This document shows positions 2,731 through 12,373 of a stretch of 17,428 nt of DNA, piece after piece. The stretch lies in the NCBI GenBank assembly GCA_023402915.1, contig JAEYFO010000092.1:1-17428 (forward strand), written 5' to 3'. A program made the position numbers and the translations under genes. The notes beneath the pieces were generated by a model. It was given only the letters and a program-made list of their open reading frames with translations, did no database searches and was not told where the DNA came from. Every line of letters begins with the position of its first letter. Positions within the stretch are counted from its first letter, which is position 1. The DNA is from Bacillota bacterium. GTDB taxonomy: Bacteria > Bacillota > Clostridia > Christensenellales > CALWSW01.

Positions 2731-4212
2731 TCAGAGCAGAATACAGATCAGGCTGCCGTTTCCGTCGTTCAAAATGCGCGTCACGGTCTCCTGCAATTTG
2801 TCCCGCGCCTCCTCGGGCATCCGGGTGAGCTTGCCGGAAAGCCCTTCGCTCACCAGATCGTGCAGCGATTTTCCAAAAAGATTGGTCTCCCAGATTTTCT
2901 GCGGATCGGCTTCAAATTCGCTGAGGAGATACTGCACCAGCTCCTTGCTCTGCTGCTCCGTCCCGACGAGGGGGGACACTTCGCACACCACGTCCGCCCG
3001 GATCAGATGCAGGCTCGGGCCGCTCGCCCGCAAACGCACGCCGTATTGCGCGCCCCGCTCGATCAGCTCCGGTTCGTCCAGCTTCAGCTCGCTCATCAGC
3101 GGCGCGATCATGGAATAGCCCGTGCTCCGCACCTCTTCGAGCGCCGATTTCACCCGGTCGTATTCCCGCTTGGCCGACACCAGCTCCTTGAGCATGGACA
3201 TGAGGTGATAATCGCTTTCGATCTCGCAGCCACATTCTTCGCCCAGCACCTGATAAAACAGCCCTTCCGCCGGTTCGAGGGCGTATTCCACCTGCCCCTT
3301 TCCCAGATCGATCCCGGCGATCTGCGGCGGCTGCAAGTGCTCGCATTCGTCAAAAGCGTCCAGCAGCGCCCCGTAGTCCCGCACCTTCGAAAAGCTGCCC
3401 ATCCGGGCGGAAATGGCGCCGAGCAGCTCTTTGGCGAGCCAATGCTCCGGCGGCAGCGCCTGCACCCAGCCCGGCACGGAAACATGCACCAGACGCAGCG
3501 GAAATTCAAACAGCAGGTTCTCGAGCAGATCGCTCACGTCCTGCGCCCCCATGTTCAAAACGTCCAGCGCCAGCACGGGCACATCGTATTTCTGCGTGAG
3601 CGCGTCGCGGAGCTTTTGCGTCTCTTCGCTTTGGGGCTGTTTGGAATTGAGCACCACCACGAAGGGGCGGCCCAGCTCCCGCAATTCCCGCACGACCCGT
3701 TCTTCCGCCGGCACATAGGCCGCCCGCGGCAGCTCGGTGATGCTTCCGTCCGTCGTCATGACCACGCCGATGGTGGCGTGCTCGCTGATGACCTTATGCG
3801 TGCCCAGCTCCGCCGCCTTTTCAAAGGGCATGGGCTCGTCGCTCCAGGGCGTGTTGACCATGCGGGGCGCTTCCCCCTCGGAAAAGCCCAGCGCCCCCTC
3901 GACCATATAGCCCACGCAGTCCACCAGCCGCACCCGGACGCTGGCCAGATCGCCGCCCAGGCTCAGCTCCGCCGCTTCCGCCGGCACAAAGCGGGGCTGC
4001 GTCGTCATGATGGTCCTGCCCGCGCCGCTTTGGGGCAGTTCGTCCGTGACCCTGCGCCGTTCGTATTCGTTTTCCAGTCCGGGCAGCACAAACAGATCCA
4101 GAAAGCGCCGGATGAACGTGGATTTTCCGGTGCGCACCGGCCCCACCACGCCCAAATAAATATCGCCCTGCGTGCGCTGTGCAATATCCCGATAAAGGTC
4201 GGTTCGTTCCAT
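2731..4212 (-). CDS. spoIVA: Stage IV sporulation protein A (spore coat morphogenetic ATPase)
   Basis: A 493-residue protein matching the length of Bacillus subtilis SpoIVA (492). In the mother cell this TRAFAC-class ATPase polymerises on the forespore surface, anchored by SpoVM, and forms the base on which the coat assembles. It begins MERTDLYRDIAQRTQGDIYL. Walker A is GPVRTGKS at 24-31 with K30; the threonine pair T70/T71 is in GRTIMTT; the Walker B aspartate is D98 in VRLVDCVGYM. The C-terminus ends in the hydrophobic GSLICILL. An in-frame ATG further upstream at 4329 was rejected because GGGAGGG lies 9 nt before the ATG at 4212 and homologues start here. It appears monocistronic. Its presence implies that the organism, or a recent ancestor, makes spores. 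Confidence 0.97.
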   Translation of the reverse strand: MERTDLYRDIAQRTQGDIYLGVVGPVRTGKSTFIRRFLDLFVLPGLENEYERRRVTDELPQSGAGRTIMTTQPRFVPAEAAELSLGGDLASVRVRLVDCVGYMVEGALGFSEGEAPRMVNTPWSDEPMPFEKAAELGTHKVISEHATIGVVMTTDGSITELPRAAYVPAEERVVRELRELGRPFVVVLNSKQPQSEETQKLRDALTQKYDVPVLALDVLNMGAQDVSDLLENLLFEFPLRLVHVSVPGWVQALPPEHWLAKELLGAISARMGSFSKVRDYGALLDAFDECEHLQPPQIAGIDLGKGQVEYALEPAEGLFYQVLGEECGCEIESDYHLMSMLKELVSAKREYDRVKSALEEVRSTGYSMIAPLMSELKLDEPELIERGAQYGVRLRASGPSLHLIRADVVCEVSPLVGTEQQSKELVQYLLSEFEADPQKIWETNLFGKSLHDLVSEGLSGKLTRMPEEARDKLQETVTRILNDGNGSLICILL

Positions 4213-4262
4213 GGTTGTTTTCCCTCCCGCAATGCTGTTTCGTGCGCCCGTTTCAACGGTAT

Positions 4263-4291
4263 ATCCTATGTGCCGGAGCGGTTGTTCATGC
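4263..4291 (-). promoter_or_regulatory. Possible sigma-E type promoter for spoIVA
   Basis: Read on the minus strand: GCATGAA (4291-4285), 14 bp, CATAGGAT (4270-4263). The -10 is close to the sigma-E consensus CATACAAT (6 of 8) and the spacing is right, but the -35 is a poor match. spoIVA is a sigma-E gene in Bacillus, which is the main reason for the call. Confidence 0.33.
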
Positions 4292-4311
4292 CTTGGGAAT
4301 TGTGATAAAAT
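4282..4311 (+). promoter_or_regulatory. Possible sigma-A promoter for the barnase-barstar operon
   Basis: TTGTTC (4282-4287), 18-bp spacer, TAAAAT (4306-4311) preceded by TGA as an extended -10. It would give a leader of about 250 nt. Its -35 overlaps the proposed -35 of spoIVA on the other strand. Confidence 0.35.
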
Positions 4312-4566
4312 AAAAAACGGCGTTACCAAAGGATTTTGAGAAAAACGGGCAGCGCGCCCTGGGCCGGGTATTTTTCATTGTTCCAAAATGCTTTTCCCTG
4401 TGCTTGGGTTCGCAGCATTGACGAGCCTGCCCGCTTTTCCCATCTTCTCTCAAAAACGGCTTTCGCCTCTGCTTTCACCGCCTGTTTTCCGCGATTTGGG
4501 GAGGCAAGCCCGTTTTGTGGCCGTTTCTACTTTTCAACCATCCACCGAAAGGGGAGCTTTTTTACC

Positions 4567-5229
4567 ATGCGCACGATGAAAACCAGACTGCTTTGCCTGC
4601 TGCTGAGCCTGCTGATGCTCTTTGGCCTGATGGGCTGCACGGCGAAAGAGGCCGGAGAACTGCTCGACGCGGCAGCCGGACTGCTTTTTGAAGAAACCGA
4701 CGACCCCGCCGCTTCCGGCGAAAGCGCTGCGCCCGAAGCGCAAACGCCCGCCGTCACGCCCGCAGAACAAACCGCCGCGCCGGAAGAAAAGCCGGCCGCA
4801 GAAGCCGAAACGCCTGAACCTTCCGAAAAGTCCGCTGAACCGGAACAAACCGCCGCGCCCGGCCAAAACGAAACGGACGGCCTGACGGTCACGGAGGAGG
4901 GCACCTATTCCGACAAGGAGCACGTGGCGCTGTATCTGCACACCTTTGGCCATCTGCCGGACAACTACCTGACCAAATCCGAAGCGGAATCCCTCGGCTG
5001 GGTCAGCAGCGCGGGGAATCTCTGGGAGGTGGCGCCCGGCAAGAGCATCGGGGGCGACAAATTCGGCAACCGCGAGGGCCTTTTGCCCAGCGCGTCCGGC
5101 CGCAAATGGTACGAATGCGACATCGATTTTGACGGCGGCCGCAGAAACGCCAAGCGCATCGTCTTTTCAAACGACGGCCTGATCTATTACACGGAGGACC
5201 ACTATTCCACCTTCACGCAGCTCTATTAA
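4567..5229 (+). CDS. Lipid-anchored barnase-type ribonuclease
   Basis: A 220-residue predicted lipoprotein with a guanyl-preferring microbial RNase domain. Residues 1-23 are a lipoprotein signal ending in the lipobox LMGC, so C24 would be lipidated. Residues 42-106 are a low-complexity linker rich in A, P, E and T. Residues 112-220 align with mature Bacillus barnase along their whole length: LPDNYLTKSEAESLGW, APGKSIGGDKFGNREG and EDHYSTFTQLY. Catalytic residues are kept: E183 (barnase E73), H212 (H102), K137 (K27), R193 (R83) and R197 (R87), so it should cleave RNA. The start is set by AAAGGGGAG about 11 nt upstream. Classical barnase is freely secreted; a lipid anchor with a long spacer would hold the enzyme outside the membrane. 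The barstar gene follows after 20 bp. Possible jobs are nucleic-acid scavenging or attack on neighbouring cells. Confidence 0.93.
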   Translation: MRTMKTRLLCLLLSLLMLFGLMGCTAKEAGELLDAAAGLLFEETDDPAASGESAAPEAQTPAVTPAEQTAAPEEKPAAEAETPEPSEKSAEPEQTAAPGQNETDGLTVTEEGTYSDKEHVALYLHTFGHLPDNYLTKSEAESLGWVSSAGNLWEVAPGKSIGGDKFGNREGLLPSASGRKWYECDIDFDGGRRNAKRIVFSNDGLIYYTEDHYSTFTQLY

Positions 5230-5249
5230 AAAGGGCGAAGGAGTGTTTC

Positions 5250-5528
5250 ATGAATCCAATCAAGTGCATCCTTGACGGCAGCCGGATGACCAGCCGGGCG
5301 GAAGCCCACGCGCACCTCGCCGAAGCGCTGGACTTTCCCGGCTGGTACGGCAAAAACCTCGACGCGCTGTTCGACCTGCTCTCCACCCGCAGCGAAGAGA
5401 CCGTGCTGCTCGTGCGGCACTGCGCGGCGCTCGAAGCGTCCCTCGGCGCTTACGGACGGGCGCTGCTCGCCACCCTTTCGGACGCGGCGGCGGAAAACCG
5501 CCGGCTCCATCTGGTGGTGGAGCTTTGA
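5250..5528 (+). CDS. Barstar-family ribonuclease inhibitor (immunity protein)
   Basis: A 92-residue cytoplasmic protein of barstar length (about 90). The core motif GWYGKNLDALFD (31-42) matches barstar YYGENLDALWD: Y33, N36, L37 and the two acidic residues D38 and D42, equivalent to barstar D35 and D39 that plug the barnase active site. The C-terminal part RRLHLVVEL forms the expected last beta strand. It has no signal peptide, so it would neutralise enzyme that folds before export. GAAGGAG lies 6 nt before the ATG, and the gene begins 20 bp after the RNase stop, so the two are almost certainly one transcript. Confidence 0.93.
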   Translation: MNPIKCILDGSRMTSRAEAHAHLAEALDFPGWYGKNLDALFDLLSTRSEETVLLVRHCAALEASLGAYGRALLATLSDAAAENRRLHLVVEL

Positions 5529-5701
5529 CAGGGAAAGAGTCTGGCACGTCGTCCAGACCACGCTTCAAAGCCCCGTTTGGGCAGCGTTTCCAGACTTTTT
5601 GCGAAAAACAAGACTTTCCGCCGGATTTTTGAAAAGCGCTCTCTGCGCGCTTCTCTGCGGAACGCACAGACTCCCCTCTTTTGAAGGCTTTTCAACCTTT
5701 G

Positions 5702-5744
5702 AGAAAAACAGCCAAATCCCCCGAAGCAATTTGCTCCGGGGGAT
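5702..5744 (-). terminator. Terminator of the flavoprotein gene, probably bidirectional
   Basis: A 12-bp stem with one mismatch (5716-5727 with 5733-5744, ATCCCCCG core) and AATTT loop. On the minus strand it lies 52 nt past the flavoprotein stop and is followed by TTTGGCTGTTTTT. On the plus strand it is followed by a weaker T-rich tract and could also end the barnase-barstar transcript. Confidence 0.8.
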
Positions 5745-5796
5745 CGTTCTATCCCGTTTTGCGGATGGTTTCAGGCTGTTTTGTCAGCCTCGTTCG

Positions 5797-8169
5797 TTAC
5801 TTCGAAAGCCCCTTGACGTACTCGACCGCGTTTGCGCCCGCCAGACGGCCGGAGGTATAGCACCAGCTCATGTCCATACCGCCGTAGGTGGGATAGACCT
5901 TTTCATTGCTGAACAGCACGCCGGTGGAATCGTTGCCCACGGCGTACAGGCCGTTCATCACGCCGCCGTTCGTGTCGAGCACGTGGAATTCCTCGTCCAC
6001 ATCCAGACCGCCCAGGGTGTTATAGATGTACTCTTCGATCTCGAAAGCGTAGAAGGGGCCGTCGCCCGCAATGGCGTCGAGATACTGCGCGTCCTTCCCG
6101 AAATCTTCGTCCGCGCCCGCTGCGCACAGCTCGTTGTAGCGCGCCACGGTGGCGGTCAGCGCGCCGGCAGGCACGCCGATCTGCTGGGCCAGTTCTTCGA
6201 TGGAATCGGCTTTATAGGCGATGCCCAGACCGATGGCTTCTTCCACGATGTCGTACACCTCGGGGATGGGCTGATCGAGATACCAGCCGCCGATGTTGAC
6301 AAAGCCGGAATACTTCTGCGACGTCAGGCCGCTTTGGGCGATCTTGTCCAGATCCGCCTGAGAACGGATGCCGTAGAAGATGTTGCCGCTCTCCGCCGGG
6401 CGGAACATGACCGTCTCGTTGCAGAAGCGCTGGCCGAGCTTGTTGACCTGCAAAACATTGGCGCTCGAGCCGAGGATGGTGGGCAGGTCGTTGAGGCTGT
6501 AAGCCTGCGGCAGGAACATATTGTGGGTATCGCCTTCCGGCGCTTTGACCACTTCCCGGCTGGAAAGGGTGATGCGCGTCGCGGCGTTATGCCATTCGGG
6601 CGGCATGTTCATGTTATACGTGGCCGCGCCCAGATCGATGGCGCTCTGCATCAGATAGCCCTTGTTCTGGGTGGAGCCCACCACGCCCCAGCCGCCGCTG
6701 AAGGGGAAGAACTCGCTGTCGATGTACTGCTCCATCATTTCCGCGTTGCCCGCAAAGCCTCCGGTAGCCATGATGACCGCCTTGGCGTTGACGACGTATT
6801 CCGTGCCGTCCACCAGATCATGCGCCTTCACGCCGGTGATCGCGCCGGAAGCGTCCGTGAGCAGCTCGTAGGCTTCGGTTTCCAGATAGACCTTTGTGCC
6901 CAGCGCTTCCGCCCGTTCCACCATGCTCTTATAGTAGCCCTGGGTCTCCGTGCGGGTCGCGATGGAATAGCCGCCCGAATACTGGAACTTGGTGATGTAA
7001 TGATCCGCCGCCGTAAAACCGCCCACCGGGTCGCGGAAGTTAAAGCCGCAATAGGACGTGAGCCAGTCCACGGTGTTGCCGCTCTCGTCAAAGAGCAGAT
7101 CGACCATTTCCACCTTGGCGTTCTGTTCGCCGTCCGCGCCGGTGGTATAGGCCAGCCAGTTGTCGTGCATCTCAGTGGGGTCCTGATAGTCTTTTCCGCC
7201 GTTGCGCGCCGCCTTCATTTCGGGCGGGTTGACGGCAAACACGTCGCAGGTCATCTGGGACGTTCCGCCGTAGATGCCCGCTTTTTCAATGGCCATCACG
7301 CTCAATTCGCCGTTCGCTTGCTGGGTGCTCGAAGCGAGCGCCGCAAGGCCGGAGCCGCCCAGACCCACCACCAGAATGTCCGTATCCAGCGTCACGGTTT
7401 CATTCTTCTGTTCGATGGTTCCGTCAAAAACCTCCGCGGGGGAACGGTCGCTGCCCGCCGCCTTGAGGGCCTCCGTCAGCGCTTCCGCCGCGGCCAGCTT
7501 GACGGCGTTGGAGGTGGCCGTCGCGCCGGTGATCGCGTCGATGACCACAGAATTGTTCTCGATCATGCGGGGCAGCAGGTTGGCCTTGACGCTCTGCATC
7601 ATGCCGTAGCTTTCGTCGTTGCCGTCCTCAATGGTCACGTCCACGATCTTGCTTTCATCCACCGTGACGCTCACGACCACGGGGTTGACTTTGAAATAGC
7701 CGATGGCCGAGCCGGTATAGGTTCCGGGCGCCAGCGTCACTGCGGCTTCTTCCGTGCCGGCCGCCTGCGCGATGCACTGCTTTGCCGCCGTCAGCACCGC
7801 CGCGCTGGACACCGTTGCGCCGGAAACCGCGTCCACCTCGGCGCTCTGCGCATCCAAAATGGCCTGCGGCAGTTCTTCGATGGCGCGGGAACCCACGCCC
7901 TGGGTCTCACTGTCGCCCACGGCGTTCACCGCGGTAATTGCATCTGCGGAAAACGTCATGGTCACGGTCACATCTCCGCCAAAGCCCTTGACCGTGGCGG
8001 TGTAATCGCCCGCGGCGTAGAGGCTCTGCGCCGCAGGAGCCTGTGTGGGTTCTGCCGTCGGCTCCGCCGTGGGCTCGGCGTCCGCTTCCTTGGCGGGCGC
8101 GCAGGCCGCAAGCGACAGCACAAGCAGTGCCGCAAGCAGCAGCGCAAGCATCTGTCTGGTCTTTTTCAT
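5797..8169 (-). CDS. Exported flavoprotein reductase: lipoprotein, two FMN-binding domains, FAD-binding domain
   Basis: A 790-residue predicted lipoprotein (signal 1-22, lipobox LAAC, C23) with a short T/E/P/A-rich linker. Two FMN-binding domains follow (about 55-137 and 150-236), each with a motif for covalent flavinylation by ApbE: DAVSGATVSS (T119) and DAITGATATS (T217). Residues 262-790 form a FAD-binding-2 domain of the fumarate/urocanate reductase class: VVGLGGSGLAA (267-277) binds the dinucleotide, IEKAGIYGGTS follows, and GQRFCNE (579-585) precedes R590, the likely proton-donor arginine. Residues that bind fumarate in known enzymes seem replaced: the His of HTMGG is N717 (YNTLGG), and the HGANRLGG stretch is unlike (KVYPTYGGMD). 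It is therefore likely a terminal reductase for another acceptor, fed with electrons from the membrane. The start has GGAGGAG upstream. The LysR gene is divergent and probably controls it. Confidence 0.9.
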   Translation of the reverse strand: MKKTRQMLALLLAALLVLSLAACAPAKEADAEPTAEPTAEPTQAPAAQSLYAAGDYTATVKGFGGDVTVTMTFSADAITAVNAVGDSETQGVGSRAIEELPQAILDAQSAEVDAVSGATVSSAAVLTAAKQCIAQAAGTEEAAVTLAPGTYTGSAIGYFKVNPVVVSVTVDESKIVDVTIEDGNDESYGMMQSVKANLLPRMIENNSVVIDAITGATATSNAVKLAAAEALTEALKAAGSDRSPAEVFDGTIEQKNETVTLDTDILVVGLGGSGLAALASSTQQANGELSVMAIEKAGIYGGTSQMTCDVFAVNPPEMKAARNGGKDYQDPTEMHDNWLAYTTGADGEQNAKVEMVDLLFDESGNTVDWLTSYCGFNFRDPVGGFTAADHYITKFQYSGGYSIATRTETQGYYKSMVERAEALGTKVYLETEAYELLTDASGAITGVKAHDLVDGTEYVVNAKAVIMATGGFAGNAEMMEQYIDSEFFPFSGGWGVVGSTQNKGYLMQSAIDLGAATYNMNMPPEWHNAATRITLSSREVVKAPEGDTHNMFLPQAYSLNDLPTILGSSANVLQVNKLGQRFCNETVMFRPAESGNIFYGIRSQADLDKIAQSGLTSQKYSGFVNIGGWYLDQPIPEVYDIVEEAIGLGIAYKADSIEELAQQIGVPAGALTATVARYNELCAAGADEDFGKDAQYLDAIAGDGPFYAFEIEEYIYNTLGGLDVDEEFHVLDTNGGVMNGLYAVGNDSTGVLFSNEKVYPTYGGMDMSWCYTSGRLAGANAVEYVKGLSK

Positions 8170-8347
8170 GATTCTTCTCCTCCTTTTTTGAGGGAATTTT
8201 TGGAAACTCCCCCTCTGTTTCCATCTTACCGCGCTTTTCTTGACAAACAAGTATCGATTTATTACACTATCCGTAACCAAACAGAACATCTCCCCCTTTT
8301 CCTTCTTTCTGCTTTGTGTGCTATCCTATGTTCCGGGAGTGTGTTTT
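8170..8347. promoter_or_regulatory. Divergent LysR/flavoprotein control region
   Basis: This 178-bp gap holds the promoters of both genes. A minus-strand candidate for the flavoprotein is TTGTTT (8250-8245), 16 bp, TAAGAT (8228-8223). Its -35 touches the -35 of the lysR promoter on the other strand, so the two promoters are back to back, as is common where a LysR protein represses itself and activates its neighbour. I could not identify a convincing T-N11-A dyad. Confidence 0.5.
8240..8268 (+). promoter_or_regulatory. Sigma-A promoter of the lysR gene
   Basis: Perfect TTGACA at 8240-8245, 17-bp spacer, TACACT at 8263-8268 (4 of 6). Start of transcription near 8275, about 73 nt before the ATG. 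Confidence 0.7.
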
Positions 8348-9226
8348 ATGGAGATCAATCAACTCAAACAGGTGGTTGCCGTGGCCGACACCGGCAGCAT
8401 TTTTGCCGCGTCCGAAAAGCTCTATCTGTCCCGCCCGGCGTTGAGCAAATCCCTCTCCCGGCTGGAAGCCGAGCTGGGGGCGGAGCTTTTTTCGCGCCAT
8501 TCCTCCGGCGTATCGCTCACGCGGGAAGGAGAACAGCTGCTGCCAAAAATCCGTCAGGCGGTGGAAGCGTTCGAGCAGGTGGAGAAGGAAGCGCTCGCGC
8601 TCCAAAAGCGCCAGAACACCGTGCATTTGGGCTTCGTTTATGGCGCGCAGCGGCTGCTGGACGACCGGCTTTCCGCCTTTTGCGCGGCGCACCCGGAGAT
8701 CAGCGTCGAAAGCAGCTTCATTTCCAACGAAGCGCTGCCCCGGGCGCTCAAAAGCGGTCAGCTGGATCTTTGCTGCTGCGGTGGACGGATGGACGATTTC
8801 GAATCGATCCACTATCCCATCCTGCGCGAGCCCATTGCCTTCGGCGTGTCCGCCCAGAGCGACGCAGCCAAACGGGGTTACCTGACCCACGGGGAATACG
8901 CTTCTTCCGTCGTGTTCGGGCCGACGGAAGGGAACGACGGCGCGTTCGTCATTCACGACGGCAGCAGCTGGATCCGAAAAAACCCTGCTGGCGCGGCCTA
9001 TCTTCACAGCGACGACATGCTCTATCTTTGCAGCCAGGTGAAGGCCGGAAAGGGCATTCTCGGGATGCCGCAGACCATCGCCTCCGCGTTCCATTTTGAG
9101 GGCGTGGTCTTTGTGCCGGAAGAAGCGCCCGTCAAATACTGGGAGCTGTCCATTCATTATTTGACCGCCAAGCCCAACGCCGCCATGCGCCTGCTGCTCG
9201 ACGAAGTGTTTCCGCCCCTGCCGTAG
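8348..9226 (+). CDS. LysR-family transcriptional regulator
   Basis: A 292-residue protein of normal LysR length. Residues 1-60 are the winged helix-turn-helix: MEINQLKQVVAVADTGSIFA, then LYLSRPALSKSLSRLEAELG and LFSRHSSGVSLTREGEQLL. Residues from about 90 on form the two-lobed effector domain. The ATG at 8348 is chosen over an upstream ATG at 8240 because it begins at the family-typical residue and has GGGAG 8 nt before it; the upstream ATG falls on the promoter itself. The gene is divergent from the flavoprotein reductase, so the likely effector is that enzyme's substrate or product. The effector itself cannot be predicted. Confidence 0.94.
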   Translation: MEINQLKQVVAVADTGSIFAASEKLYLSRPALSKSLSRLEAELGAELFSRHSSGVSLTREGEQLLPKIRQAVEAFEQVEKEALALQKRQNTVHLGFVYGAQRLLDDRLSAFCAAHPEISVESSFISNEALPRALKSGQLDLCCCGGRMDDFESIHYPILREPIAFGVSAQSDAAKRGYLTHGEYASSVVFGPTEGNDGAFVIHDGSSWIRKNPAGAAYLHSDDMLYLCSQVKAGKGILGMPQTIASAFHFEGVVFVPEEAPVKYWELSIHYLTAKPNAAMRLLLDEVFPPLP

Positions 9227-9490
9227 CGACGGTTTATTGATAGCTTCCAGCTTATTCTTACACTTTCCCCCGTCAAACGCCCACTTCTTCAGAGAAGCAC
9301 TGCGCGCTGACCGCAGGCGCACTGTTTCGCTCAGCCGCATCCCAAACGCCCGTTGGAACAACATCGCGCGCCCTTTTCCGCATACACTCTTGAGGATTCC
9401 CCTCCCATAAATGTACTTCATCATTGGCTCTTGCAGGACAATTGATATTCAGTCATTTTACTTGAAGCCCGCTCTCTCCTCTTTCCCTGT

Positions 9491-9502
9491 GAGTGTACAC
9501 TC
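9491..9502. repeat. 12-bp perfect palindrome
   Basis: GAGTGTACACTC is self-complementary. It lies in the gene-free stretch with no promoter recognised next to it. It could be a protein binding site or chance. Confidence 0.35.
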
Positions 9503-9850
9503 CTCATCGGCTCTCCATTGCTGATTGTGCTTCCGTCATTGATGTTGGATCCACTTTCCCCCCTTTCCCGTCTGTCCGCTTGCCCACACATACTCTCGCC
9601 CTTCGCGCTTTTTAGAGCTTTTCTTTCAAACTCCTTTGGACTGCCGCCCTTTTCTCTCTCCCCTGGGCCGCTCTCCCACTGCTCATCAATCCGTTTTCAC
9701 GCTTTTTCAAACCGAAACGAATCCCCTCTGCCACGCCTCCACTGCTCGACGAGCTGTTTCCGCCCCTCATCTGCGCGTTTCCCCAAACGTCCCTTTTTCC
9801 CCGCGCCGCTCCCCCAACCTCCTTCCTGCTTCCACCCTTTTTTCAACCTC

Positions 9851-9902
9851 CAAAAATAAAAAAATCGCCCCCGCCGCAGGGTATTTCCCGCGACAGAGGG
9901 CG
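9851..9902 (-). terminator. Terminator downstream of plsY
   Basis: On the minus strand, CGCCCTC (9902-9896) pairs with GGGGGCG (9872-9866) with one G-U pair, an inner CGCGGG/CCCTGCG helix closes an AAATA loop, and a T-rich tract ATTTTTTTATTTTT follows. It is 125 nt past the plsY stop. On the plus strand the stem is also followed by six T, so it may act in both directions. Confidence 0.75.
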
Positions 9903-10026
9903 TTTTTTCATATGCTTTTCGATCGGGTCAGCCCGCCTCTTTTTCGCCTGCTTTGAGCCGCTGCGGCTTTTGCAGGCGCTTTCTGTTCTGTTCAAAACGG
10001 GCAAACCGCCCGCTTTGGTTCCGGCT

Positions 10027-10680
10027 TTACTTGAGGTTGCGGCCGCTCTGCTTCTTTTCCGCGGCCGAGGTGGAATAGCCGTCCTCCTTCTTGCCCGCGC
10101 CATAGAAGGGGTTTTCCGTGCCGCTGATCAGGCGGCGGATATTCTCCCGGTGCGTGAAGAAGATCAGCAGCATCAGCAGGAACATGGCGATCATGTACGC
10201 GGGCTTTCCGCCAAAAAGGCTCACCACGAAGAACGCCAGCACGCTCAGCAGCGACGCGAGGGACACAAAGCGCGTCACCATGGCCAGCAGGAACGCCACC
10301 GCAAAGATGATGGCCGCCGCCAGCGGGTTGATGGCCAGCATCACGCCGAAGGCGGAAGCCACGCCCTTGCCGCCGCGGAAGCCGTACTGCACCGGCCAGA
10401 TGTGACCGAGGATGCAGCACACCGCGCCCACCGCCGCGCACACGTCGCCGCCGATCCAGCGGCAGATCACGACGGTGATGCAGCCCTTGAACAGGTCGCC
10501 CAGGAACGTCAGCGCGCCCATGCCCCAGCCGAACGTGCGGATCATGTTGGTGGAACCGGCGTTGCCGGAGCCGAAGTTTCGGATGTCCTGCTTCGCCACC
10601 TGCGTGCTGAGGATGATGGCCGTCTGAATGGTGCCGAGGAAATAGGCCAAAATGGCGCAGACCAGAATCTTGAGGAACAT
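10027..10680 (-). CDS. plsY: Glycerol-3-phosphate acyltransferase PlsY
   Basis: A 217-residue integral membrane enzyme that moves an acyl group from acyl-phosphate to glycerol 3-phosphate, the first step of phospholipid synthesis. The three family motifs are present: SGNAGSTN at 38-45; GH at 92-93 with FRGGKGVA at 101-108; HRENIRRLISGTE at 177-189. Hydrophobic segments near 1-25, 52-75, 80-97, 110-137 and 140-176 fit its usual membrane topology. The C-terminal tail of about 25 residues is polar. The start at 10680 has AAGGAGGT just upstream; an in-frame ATG at 10782 was rejected because its extension is charged and unlike the family. Downstream of der, with a 361-bp gap, and followed by a terminator. 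Confidence 0.97.
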   Translation of the reverse strand: MFLKILVCAILAYFLGTIQTAIILSTQVAKQDIRNFGSGNAGSTNMIRTFGWGMGALTFLGDLFKGCITVVICRWIGGDVCAAVGAVCCILGHIWPVQYGFRGGKGVASAFGVMLAINPLAAAIIFAVAFLLAMVTRFVSLASLLSVLAFFVVSLFGGKPAYMIAMFLLMLLIFFTHRENIRRLISGTENPFYGAGKKEDGYSTSAAEKKQSGRNLK

Positions 10681-11041
10681 TTGCTCAAACCTCCTTGCTG
10701 AATTGCTTGTTCTGTTTTCTTGGCGTTTTGTGAAAAGGCGTTTCGCTTTCTCTGTTTTCCGGGGAAAAACGAACCGCGCCAAATTCCGGGGCCGCCGCTG
10801 TCAGGCAGGCTTCGGCAATTCGATTTTTCCCTGTTTTTCAACCGTTGATCTTTTCGCTCTTTCCGGCCCTCGGGTTTCGCCGCAAGCCGCCGGAGTTTCC
10901 TTTTCAGGCTTTTCACCGCGATTGGCTGCCGCCAGAGTTATTTTTCAGGCTTTTTTTCGCCAACCTTCGGAGTTTCATTCTTTCCAGTCGCCCGGCCGCA
11001 CGATTTGACGTTTCAGCTTATTGCTTTTCGCTCTTTCGCCG
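10681..11041. other. Intergenic stretch between der and plsY, with degenerate tandem repeat
   Basis: 361 bp with no supported gene, pyrimidine-rich on the plus strand. It is unusually long for two genes normally in one operon, and I find neither a clear promoter nor a terminator. Between 10886 and about 10988 it carries a diverged tandem repeat (listed separately). Confidence 0.55.
10886..10988. repeat. Degenerate tandem repeat, 42-nt period
   Basis: Unit 1 (10886-10927) and unit 2 (from 10928) both begin GCCGCC, then GAGTT, then TTTTCAGGCTTTT and a CGC block. A third partial copy with CGGAGTTTC starts near 10968. The copies differ at many positions. Confidence 0.5.
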
Positions 11042-12373
11042 TCAGTCGTTCTTGTCCCGCTCGCGCTTTCGCACGATCATGCGGATGGGCGTGCCCGTCA
11101 GGCCGAAGGTCTTGCGCAGGTAATTTTCCAGATACCGCTGATAGGAAAAATGCAGGATCGACGGGTCGTTGACGAACAGCACGAACGTCGGCGGCTGCAC
11201 GCTCACCTGCGTGGCGTAGTAGATCTTGAGCCTGCGGCCCTTGTCGGACGGGGGCTCCGTGACGGTCACGGCCTCGTTGAGCACGTCGTTGAGCATACCG
11301 GTGGGCACGCGCATGATGCTCTGGGCATAGACCTCGTCCACCAGATCGATGATCTTGTTGAGCCGCTGTCCGGTTTTTGCGGAAATATACAGCTGCGGAA
11401 CGTAGCTCATGAACGCCAGATCATTTGCGATGTCTTTTTGGAAATGGTTGATGGTATACGTATCCTTTTCCACCAGATCCCACTTGTTGACCAGCACGAC
11501 GCAGGCCTTGCCCTCTTCGTGGCAATACCCGGCGATCTTCACGTCCTGCTCGCTCATGCCCTGCGCCGCGTCCACCACGATCAGGCACACGTCGCACCGC
11601 CGCACCGCGGCCAAGGAGCGGATCACGCTGTAGCGCTCGATGGATTCATCTTCGATGGCGCGCTTTCTGCGGATGCCCGCCGTGTCCACGATGAGGTAAT
11701 TTTTCCCGTCGACGGAAAAGCGGGAGTCGATGGAATCGCGGGTCGTTCCGGCCACGTTTGAAACGATCGTGCGCTCTTCGCCCACCAGCGCGTTCACCAG
11801 CGAGGACTTGCCCACGTTGGGCTTTCCGACCACGGCGATCTGGATGAGGTTCTCTTCGCCCTCGTGCTCCTCCGGTTCGGGGAAGTGGGAAACGATCTCG
11901 TCGAGCAGGTCGCCAAGGCCCAGCCCCTGTCCGGCGGAAATGCCGATGGGTTCGCCGATGCCCAGGGCGTAAAAGTCGTAGATATTGTCCGCAATGCCCT
12001 GATGATCGATCTTATTGACCCCAAGAACGATGGGCTTTTTCGTCCGGCGCAGCATGTTGGCCACTTCGTAATCCGCCGCCGTGATGCCCTCGCGCGCGTC
12101 GCACAGGAACAGGATCACGTCCGCCGTCTCCATGGCCAGCTCGGCCTGGCGGCGCATCTGCGCAAGGATGATGTCCTCGCTCAGCGGCTCGATGCCCCCC
12201 GTATCAATAAGGGTAAAGGAGTGGGAAAGCCATTGTGCATCGGCGTAAATGCGGTCGCGGGTCACGCCGGGCGTGTCCTCCACGATGGCGATGCGCTTTC
12301 CCACCAGTTTGTTAAAAAGGGTGGATTTGCCGACGTTTGGCCGGCCCACCACCGCAACCAGTGGTTTTGCCAT
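11042..12373 (-). CDS. der: Ribosome biogenesis GTPase Der (EngA)
   Basis: A 443-residue double GTPase needed for maturation of the 50S ribosomal subunit. First G domain: GRPNVGKST at 10-18, DTGG at 57-60, NKID at 120-123. Second G domain: GKPNVGKSS at 183-191, DTAGIRRK at 230-237, NKWD at 296-299. The C-terminal KH-like domain runs from about 350 to the basic end RKRERDKND. The length is normal for the family. Start at 12373 with GGAGGAC upstream. It begins 27 bp after the DUF512 gene, so the two are likely co-transcribed. The DUF512 - der - plsY order is conserved in many clostridia. Confidence 0.98.
   Translation of the reverse strand: MAKPLVAVVGRPNVGKSTLFNKLVGKRIAIVEDTPGVTRDRIYADAQWLSHSFTLIDTGGIEPLSEDIILAQMRRQAELAMETADVILFLCDAREGITAADYEVANMLRRTKKPIVLGVNKIDHQGIADNIYDFYALGIGEPIGISAGQGLGLGDLLDEIVSHFPEPEEHEGEENLIQIAVVGKPNVGKSSLVNALVGEERTIVSNVAGTTRDSIDSRFSVDGKNYLIVDTAGIRRKRAIEDESIERYSVIRSLAAVRRCDVCLIVVDAAQGMSEQDVKIAGYCHEEGKACVVLVNKWDLVEKDTYTINHFQKDIANDLAFMSYVPQLYISAKTGQRLNKIIDLVDEVYAQSIMRVPTGMLNDVLNEAVTVTEPPSDKGRRLKIYYATQVSVQPPTFVLFVNDPSILHFSYQRYLENYLRKTFGLTGTPIRMIVRKRERDKND

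What the first reader, a model, noticed from the sequence alone, without database searches (positions are those of the whole stretch)
4567..5528. Lipid-anchored barnase with its barstar in a spore-forming clostridium
Known barnases are released into the medium. This one has a lipobox (C24), a 60-residue A/P/E/T linker and an intact barnase domain (E183, H212, K137, R193, R197 all retained), with barstar 20 bp downstream. An RNase tethered to the outer face of the membrane could feed the cell nucleotides at the surface or act on touching competitors, with barstar protecting against enzyme that folds before export. What I see is the domain layout and residues; tethering and function are inferred.
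Basis: partly seen in the sequence, partly recalled or inferred. Interest (0 to 1): 0.72.

Follow-up and report, generated by a model that had tools for sequence, protein, structure and literature searches.

The report
Membrane-tethered barnase with cytoplasmic barstar
An uncultured clostridium carries the RNA-cutting enzyme barnase with a predicted lipid anchor that should hold it to the cell surface, next to the gene for its usual inhibitor; comparison suggests that this anchored form is common in related bacteria although the studied textbook enzymes are freely secreted.

Summary
4567-5229 encodes a 220-residue protein with a lipoprotein signal (LMGC24), a 93-residue acidic Ala/Glu/Thr/Pro-rich linker and an intact barnase domain (118-219; six active-site residues kept). 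A barstar gene starts 20 bp downstream.

The context changes the picture: this is not an oddity. By my lipobox rule 50 of the 80 nearest genome loci pass. In 291 genomes drawn evenly from the class of relative L008 (Clostridia), 27 of 47 barnase matches carry an N-terminal export signal: 16 lipobox, 11 a hydrophobic segment, 6 of these without a cleavage-like motif. In a second class (probably Bacilli) 21 of 30 examined pass by rule. A stricter pattern passes the window but only 25 of 80 relatives. All 26 genomes with a signal-bearing barnase hold a barstar, against 29 of 265 others.

Best reading: an envelope-tethered RNase that cuts RNA arriving at the cell, for recovery or clearing, with cytoplasmic barstar as insurance before export. 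Tethering is predicted; barstar's role is supported by co-occurrence; nutrition is inferred. Contact killing is poorly supported. Nine literature searches naming barnase, barstar or such RNases found no description of lipid-anchored barnase.

The parts
4550..4556 (+). ribosome-binding site AGGGGAG, 10 bp before the barnase ATG
   Evidence: read directly
4567..5229 (+). lipobox barnase gene, 220 aa
   Evidence: PF00545 1.6e-19; PDB barnase/binase 3.3e-39
4567..4635 (+). lipoprotein-type signal peptide, residues 1-23
   Evidence: passes G+LPPv2 (recalled); 2 of 8100 shuffles pass
4636..4638 (+). Cys24, predicted lipid attachment site of LMGC
   Evidence: invariant in the 38 rows, which were chosen for their lipobox
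4639..4917 (+). acidic A/E/T/P-rich linker, residues 25-117, mostly predicted disordered
   Evidence: composition; pLDDT 45-58 at residues 41-100, short helix predicted at 29-40
4918..5223 (+). barnase catalytic domain, residues 118-219, with K137 R169 E183 R193 R197 H212
5238..5243 (+). ribosome-binding site AAGGAG of barstar
   Evidence: read directly
5250..5528 (+). barstar gene, 92 aa, no export signal; D38 and D42 = barstar D35 and D39
   Evidence: PF01337 2e-19; fold match to barstar; D35 kept in 65 of 68 and D39 in 66 of 68 barstar rows
5575..5595 (+). terminator-like hairpin with T tail after barstar
   Evidence: consensus scan only; 7 such sites in the stretch against 3.3 in shuffles

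Best explanation
A two-gene operon makes (1) a barnase that is exported by Sec, lipidated at Cys24 and held on the outer face of the membrane by a flexible acidic linker, inside or just through the cell wall, and (2) a cytoplasmic barstar that blocks any barnase that folds before export. The tethered enzyme cuts RNA that diffuses to the cell, leaving short pieces at the surface for further breakdown and uptake, or clearing RNA from the wall. Shown: domain, residues, signal type, gene order, co-inheritance of barstar. Inferred: co-transcription, lipidation, RNase activity, RNA recovery.
For: Intact active site and fold. Lipobox beyond chance (2 of 8100 shuffles with the strict pattern; 92 of 7800 with my looser rule). 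By that rule 50 of 80 nearest loci and 16 of 27 signal-bearing barnases of the class sample have a lipobox; the other 11 have a hydrophobic N-terminal segment, 6 of them without a cleavage-like motif. The rule gives only 11 of 119 for the list, of which 76 look like ordinary signal peptides, so it does separate classes. Anchor type changes on the barnase tree (lipobox label 26 changes, shuffled mean 48.6; firm branches force only 3). Barstar lies within 400 bp downstream in 63 of 80 and next door in 22 of 27; it is in the genome in 26 of 26 against 29 of 265 (p 3.9e-22). Of 14 genomes with no barstar beside the barnase, 12 hold one elsewhere, which looks like housekeeping-like inheritance rather than a mobile toxin pair.
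Against: No SignalP/LipoP run and no proteomics; lipoproteins can be shed. The strict lipoprotein pattern passes the window but only 25 of 80 relatives. 30 of 80 nearest loci fail my rule, and some have ordinary-looking signal peptides (e.g. L036, L049), so tethering is not strictly required; 5 of the 11 hydrophobic-segment members of the class sample have a possible cleavage motif. Nutrition rests on analogy: 5'-nucleotidase-type enzymes are commoner in these genomes (19 of 26 vs 104 of 265, p 0.0014), but a control family, peptidase M14, is skewed as strongly the other way (5 of 26 vs 135 of 265, p 0.0019), so lineage make-up can explain such numbers.
Confidence: 0.55

Rival explanations
1. 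Surface-displayed antibacterial toxin with immunity: the anchored RNase is passed to touching cells and barstar is the immunity protein, as in the SitA/SitI lipoprotein toxins of myxobacteria.
For: Toxin-then-immunity gene order; simple barnase-barstar pairs were proposed as an incipient form of that order (PMC3482391, passages); SitA shows that lipoprotein nuclease toxins exist (PMC5562445, passages); one named relative pair lies on a 592-kb Aerococcus plasmid.
Against: SitA is delivered by outer-membrane exchange, for which a Gram-positive envelope has no membrane. 13 of 73 measurable lipobox proteins have at most 35 residues between Cys and barnase core, too short to cross a wall (thickness recalled). 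Apart from barstar no gene recurs beside more than 12 of 81 loci, and the few annotated are not known delivery genes. Barnase and barstar unlinked in 12 genomes. No phage record matches.
Confidence: 0.13
2. The protein is lipidated but shed by proteolysis of the long linker, so it works as an ordinary released barnase.
For: Long disordered linker; some relatives have ordinary-looking signal peptides.
Against: Short-linker relatives; hydrophobic N-terminal segments without cleavage motif in 6 of 11 non-lipobox members of the class sample.
Confidence: 0.15
3. Lipobox not used: ordinary type I cleavage and release.
For: The prediction rests on sequence patterns alone; the strict pattern fails in 55 of 80 relatives.
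Against: The window itself passes the strict pattern, which 2 of 8100 shuffles do; 106 of 118 further relatives listed pass my looser rule, many of them near-copies.
Confidence: 0.07
4. Intracellular toxin-antitoxin pair.
For: Toxin and inhibitor genes adjacent.
Against: Export signal on the toxin; toxin first; barstar not linked in some lineages; no PADLOC family.
Confidence: 0.03

Closest known systems
Barnase-barstar of Bacillus amyloliquefaciens (and binase)
   Same: Same catalytic domain, residues, fold; same inhibitor family
   Different: Studied enzymes are released (PMC12020853 passage lists barnases in the growth medium; otherwise recalled); here a lipobox and a 93-residue linker precede the domain; barstar about 26% identical
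'Ribonuclease domain-containing protein' + 'barstar family protein' of Aerococcus tenax and unannotated relatives
   Same: Lipobox (LAGC), barnase, barstar 38 bp downstream: the same layout in an annotated record
   Different: Product names say nothing of anchoring; shorter linker
Barnase-barstar pairs in the polymorphic-toxin survey (Zhang et al. 2012)
   Same: Barnase/barstar pairing and toxin-then-immunity order (PMC3482391, passages)
   Different: In the passages seen, lipoboxes are named for other proteins only (Amoebophilus effectors, Imm65)
SitA/SitI lipoprotein toxins of Myxococcus
   Same: Lipobox, C-terminal nuclease, inhibitor gene downstream (PMC5562445, passages)
   Different: Delivered by outer-membrane exchange; variable toxin domains, a WHH nuclease and a tRNase among those named in the passages seen

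Membership tests
Barnase / RNase N1 family (PF00545) | Profile match and barnase fold | tested here: met
   70.7 bits against cut-off 24; TM 0.98 by target to barnase
Barnase / RNase N1 family (PF00545) | Catalytic K27, R59, E73, R83, R87, H102 | tested here: met
   all six kept in the window; across 81 rows E73, R83, R87, H102 in 81, K27 in 80, R59 in 33
Barnase / RNase N1 family (PF00545) | Guanyl-preferring RNase activity | not testable with these tools
   needs an assay
Barstar (PF01337) | Profile match, fold, barnase-binding acidic pair D35/D39 | tested here: met
   69.8 bits against 23.4; fold; D38 and D42
Barstar (PF01337) | Inhibits the neighbouring barnase | not testable with these tools
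   co-occurrence only, 26 of 26 genomes
Bacterial lipoprotein | Positive n-region, hydrophobic stretch, lipobox ending in Cys | tested here: met
   G+LPPv2 (recalled pattern) passed; shuffles 2 of 8100
Bacterial lipoprotein | Actual lipidation; Lgt and LspA in the genome | not testable with these tools
   no whole genome is held for the window
SitA-type lipoprotein toxin | Outer-membrane exchange system (TraA/TraB) in a myxobacterium | not tested
   not searched for; the host is a spore-forming clostridium
Polymorphic toxin | Constant leader with exchangeable toxin domains | tested here: inconclusive
   between Cys24 and E110 no column is invariant among 38 lipobox rows; whether the leader carries other toxins was not searched
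Type II toxin-antitoxin | Both partners cytoplasmic | tested here: not met
   toxin has an export signal

The most novel reading that the evidence does not exclude
Surface tethering is the ordinary and perhaps ancestral state of barnase in anaerobic Firmicutes, reached by interchangeable anchors (lipobox, uncleaved helix), so that these cells wear a guanyl-cutting RNase coat under or in the wall; the released barnase of Bacillus, on which a textbook system was built, would be the special case.
Probability: 0.28. Interest if true: 0.62.

Novelty: new variant of a known kind. Interest (0 to 1): 0.45.

Why it matters
Barnase-barstar is one of the best-studied protein pairs, yet what barnase does for its bacterium is little known (recalled). 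If most members in gut and rumen Clostridia are anchored, the natural job is probably at the envelope (RNA recovery or clearing) rather than in the medium, and it can be tested in cultured species that carry the pair.

Tried and rejected
Polybasic linkers as a substitute wall anchor in signal-peptide members: 2 of 10 against 2 of 73 lipobox members, p 0.07, dropped. Link to extracellular nucleotidases: p 0.0014, but a control family was equally skewed, so not used as support. Catalytic decay in barnases without a neighbouring barstar: none seen at K27, E73, R83, R87, H102. Known defence system: no PADLOC hit. Rfam RNA in the window: none at the gathering scores. Sigma-70-like promoter in 4250-5850: none found. 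Phage carriage: no hit in 50,697 records at E 1e-5. Dating the lipobox: not possible, 59 of 149 inner branches are poorly supported.

Limits: the 80 loci are the best of 566 and so biased to close relatives. In one search only 30 of 46 matches were fetched and read. Genome completeness was not told by the tool. Start codons of relatives were chosen by a simple rule (ATG, Shine-Dalgarno, hydrophobicity). Lipobox counts depend on the rule: 26 of 81 rows (window included) by the strict pattern, 49 of 80 by a first loose rule, 50 of 80 by the rule used here. Five second-class rows that fail the rule read as lipoboxes by eye (L146, L157, L161, L165, L168); L146 has no ATG, GTG or TTG start before its hydrophobic stretch in the frame printed, and L161 and L168 have an unusual Asn in the box. 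In the tree six rows were set to lipobox by eye; one of them (L054) already passed the rule. In one search the barnase core was located by a pattern; only 73 lipobox rows could be measured.

Full report
WHAT IS THERE. The frame 4567-5229 (+) encodes 220 residues beginning MRTMKTRLLCLLLSLLMLFGLMGC; 5250-5528 (+) encodes 92 residues. The first matches Pfam Ribonuclease PF00545 (1.6e-19), the second Barstar PF01337 (2e-19). Barnase and binase chains align without gaps to residues 118/119-219. The six catalytic positions checked are kept: K137, R169, E183, R193, R197, H212. AlphaFold2 gives a barnase fold for the domain and low confidence for residues 41-100 of the linker, and a barstar fold for the neighbour. 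Each gene has its own ribosome-binding site and the gap is 20 bp. A terminator-like hairpin follows at 5575-5595 (consensus scan only).

THE ANCHOR. LMGC24 ends the hydrophobic stretch and passes the strict G+LPPv2 pattern (recalled, not from a call); 2 of 8100 shuffled N-termini of the family pass it. The linker 25-117 has 93 residues, 23 acidic and 4 basic. No lipoprotein predictor could be run, so lipidation is a prediction.

HOW COMMON IT IS. A protein search gave 7365 relatives among 7999 scored and a second, drawn to shorter proteins, 8000 of 8000; 120 rows are listed of each. Of the 118 rows new, 106 pass my lipobox rule, but many are near-copies. Among the 80 best of 566 genome loci, 50 pass that rule; under the strict pattern only 25 of these 80 do, partly because boxes such as LFTGC fall outside it. 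To escape the bias to close relatives I took 291 genomes drawn evenly from the class of G018, the genome of locus L008 (titled uncultured Clostridia bacterium). 43 of 291 have a PF00545 match, 47 matches in all. All 47 were fetched and read. 27 carry an N-terminal export signal: 16 lipobox, 11 a hydrophobic segment; of the 11, 6 show no cleavage-like motif and 5 a possible one. One match (L127) is below the family cut-off. The other 19 are a more distant kind without an export signal by my rule, except two borderline rows (L113, L114). Three of the 19 were scanned and all three hit phage Mu F-like protein, two above and one below the Pfam cut-off. In a second class (that of G310, genome of L059, titled Erysipelotrichales; presumably GTDB Bacilli) 44 of 395 genomes match. 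Of 46 matches, 30 were fetched: 21 pass the lipobox rule and five more read as lipoboxes by eye, with the reservations given under limits. The rule is not indiscriminate: shuffled N-termini pass in 92 of 7800, and only 11 of 119 proteins of the list pass; the 12 of that list read in full all have two barnase domains. Named examples are Acetoanaerobium noterae (SFVAC) and a plasmid of Aerococcus tenax (LAGC, with an annotated barstar family protein 38 bp downstream).

BARSTAR. A barstar profile built from the loci finds it within 400 bp downstream in 63 of 80; three more have it further away (L031, L067, L076); 14 have none in the fetched stretch, two of these (L003, L042) close to contig ends. 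In the class sample 22 of 27 signal-bearing barnases have it next door. By genome, 42 of 43 with barnase hold a barstar against 13 of 248 without; for signal-bearing barnases it is 26 of 26 against 29 of 265, p 3.9e-22. Of the 14 genomes without a neighbouring barstar, 12 hold one elsewhere and two none; each has a single barnase. In one the two genes lie about 125 kb apart on one contig (L048/G012). Around some of these barnases a fixed block of genes recurs (clusters in 9-12 of 81 loci, with examples from L030, L032, L048, L053; full membership not listed); in L048 it includes a methyltransferase, a DUF6077 protein and an EpsG-like protein below cut-off. In 7 of 11 such unlinked-barstar stretches (L128-L138) the same kind of downstream ORF follows, which I take for glyA from its sequence (not tested). 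In 0 of 68 barstar matches was there a hydrophobic N-terminus; D35 is kept in 65 and D39 in 66 of 68. This fits a cytoplasmic safety partner that must be present but need not be linked.

MECHANISM. The domain is an intact RNase of a family that cuts 3' of guanosine without metal (recalled). Export with a lipobox puts it outside the membrane. Linker length from Cys to barnase core, in the 73 lipobox rows where the core could be located, runs from 18 to 305 residues (median 69; 13 of 73 at most 35; window 95). With about 0.35 nm per residue and a wall of tens of nanometres (both recalled), the short ones cannot reach beyond the wall, so the shared working place would be the zone between membrane and wall. 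RNA reaching that zone would be cut and the products kept close. This favours recovery or clearing of RNA over action on other cells. I tested the nutrition idea by asking whether 5'-nucleotidase-type enzymes (PF02872) go with these barnases: 19 of 26 genomes against 104 of 265 (p 0.0014). But peptidase M14 goes the other way at similar strength (5 of 26 against 135 of 265, p 0.0019) and sortase is neutral (18 of 26 against 141 of 265, p 0.15), so lineage make-up can explain it. The nutrition step is inference.

EVOLUTION OF THE ANCHOR. On a tree of 155 barnase domains the lipobox label changes 26 times (shuffled mean 48.6), but few branches are firm and they force only 3 changes. The anchor seems exchangeable; which state came first is open.

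WHAT IS KNOWN. Ten searches of the held library (open-licence papers only): nine on barnase, barstar or such RNases (three of them, 61-63, returned no paper at all) and one on SitA. I saw listings and starts of abstracts, and passages of four papers. None of what I saw describes a lipid-anchored barnase. Zhang et al. [quoted passage not shown] the text held is cut at 300,000 characters). SitA (PMC5562445, passages) is the nearest lipoprotein nuclease toxin but is delivered by outer-membrane exchange. PMC12020853 (passages) lists barnases among enzymes of the B. amyloliquefaciens growth medium; PMC6901985 (passages) reviews the studied Bacillus enzymes. Subscription papers are not covered, so prior description cannot be excluded.

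VERDICT. New variant of a known kind, interest 0.45.

Noticed in passing
L107-L110, L112-L126 (class sample): 19 short barnases without clear export signal; 3 of 3 scanned join a phage Mu F-like piece (PF04233; one PHROG-scanned: head morphogenesis) to the barnase, and most have barstar downstream; the 18 placed on the tree form one clade (SH-aLRT 98). They look like phage-derived barnase modules.
   Followed up: partly
P0003-P0121: Relatives with two barnase domains in tandem (12 of 12 read in full), mostly with ordinary-looking signal peptides; P0003 and P0004 combine a lipobox with two barnases.
   Followed up: partly
L030, L032, L048, L053 and similar; L128-L138: Lachnospiraceae-type genomes with a lipobox barnase in one recurring neighbourhood and barstar in another: an unlinked but conserved pair.
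   Followed up: partly
L157-L160, L163, L165: Lipobox-like barnases whose spacer resembles the surface repeat YTVxFDSDGGTxIxSQxIEEG instead of low-complexity sequence; the repeat family (InlB/Listeria-Bacteroides type) is recalled, not tested.
   Followed up: no
window 5797-8289, minus strand: FAD- and FMN-binding reductase with its own lipobox-like LAAC and a TEPTAEPTAEPTQ linker, divergent from a LysR regulator at 8240-9226: a second predicted anchored enzyme next to the barnase operon.
   Followed up: no
window 2731-12373: The barnase-barstar pair and the reductase/LysR genes lie between spoIVA and plsY-der, genes that I recall as usually close together in Firmicutes; this would suggest an insertion, not tested.
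   Followed up: no
window 4894-5226: The barnase domain of the window is acidic (17 D+E against 11 K+R in residues 110-220), whereas the classic enzyme is basic (recalled).
   Followed up: no
class sample: 13 of 248 genomes without a PF00545 match still hold a barstar: orphan inhibitors or partners of other nucleases.
   Followed up: no
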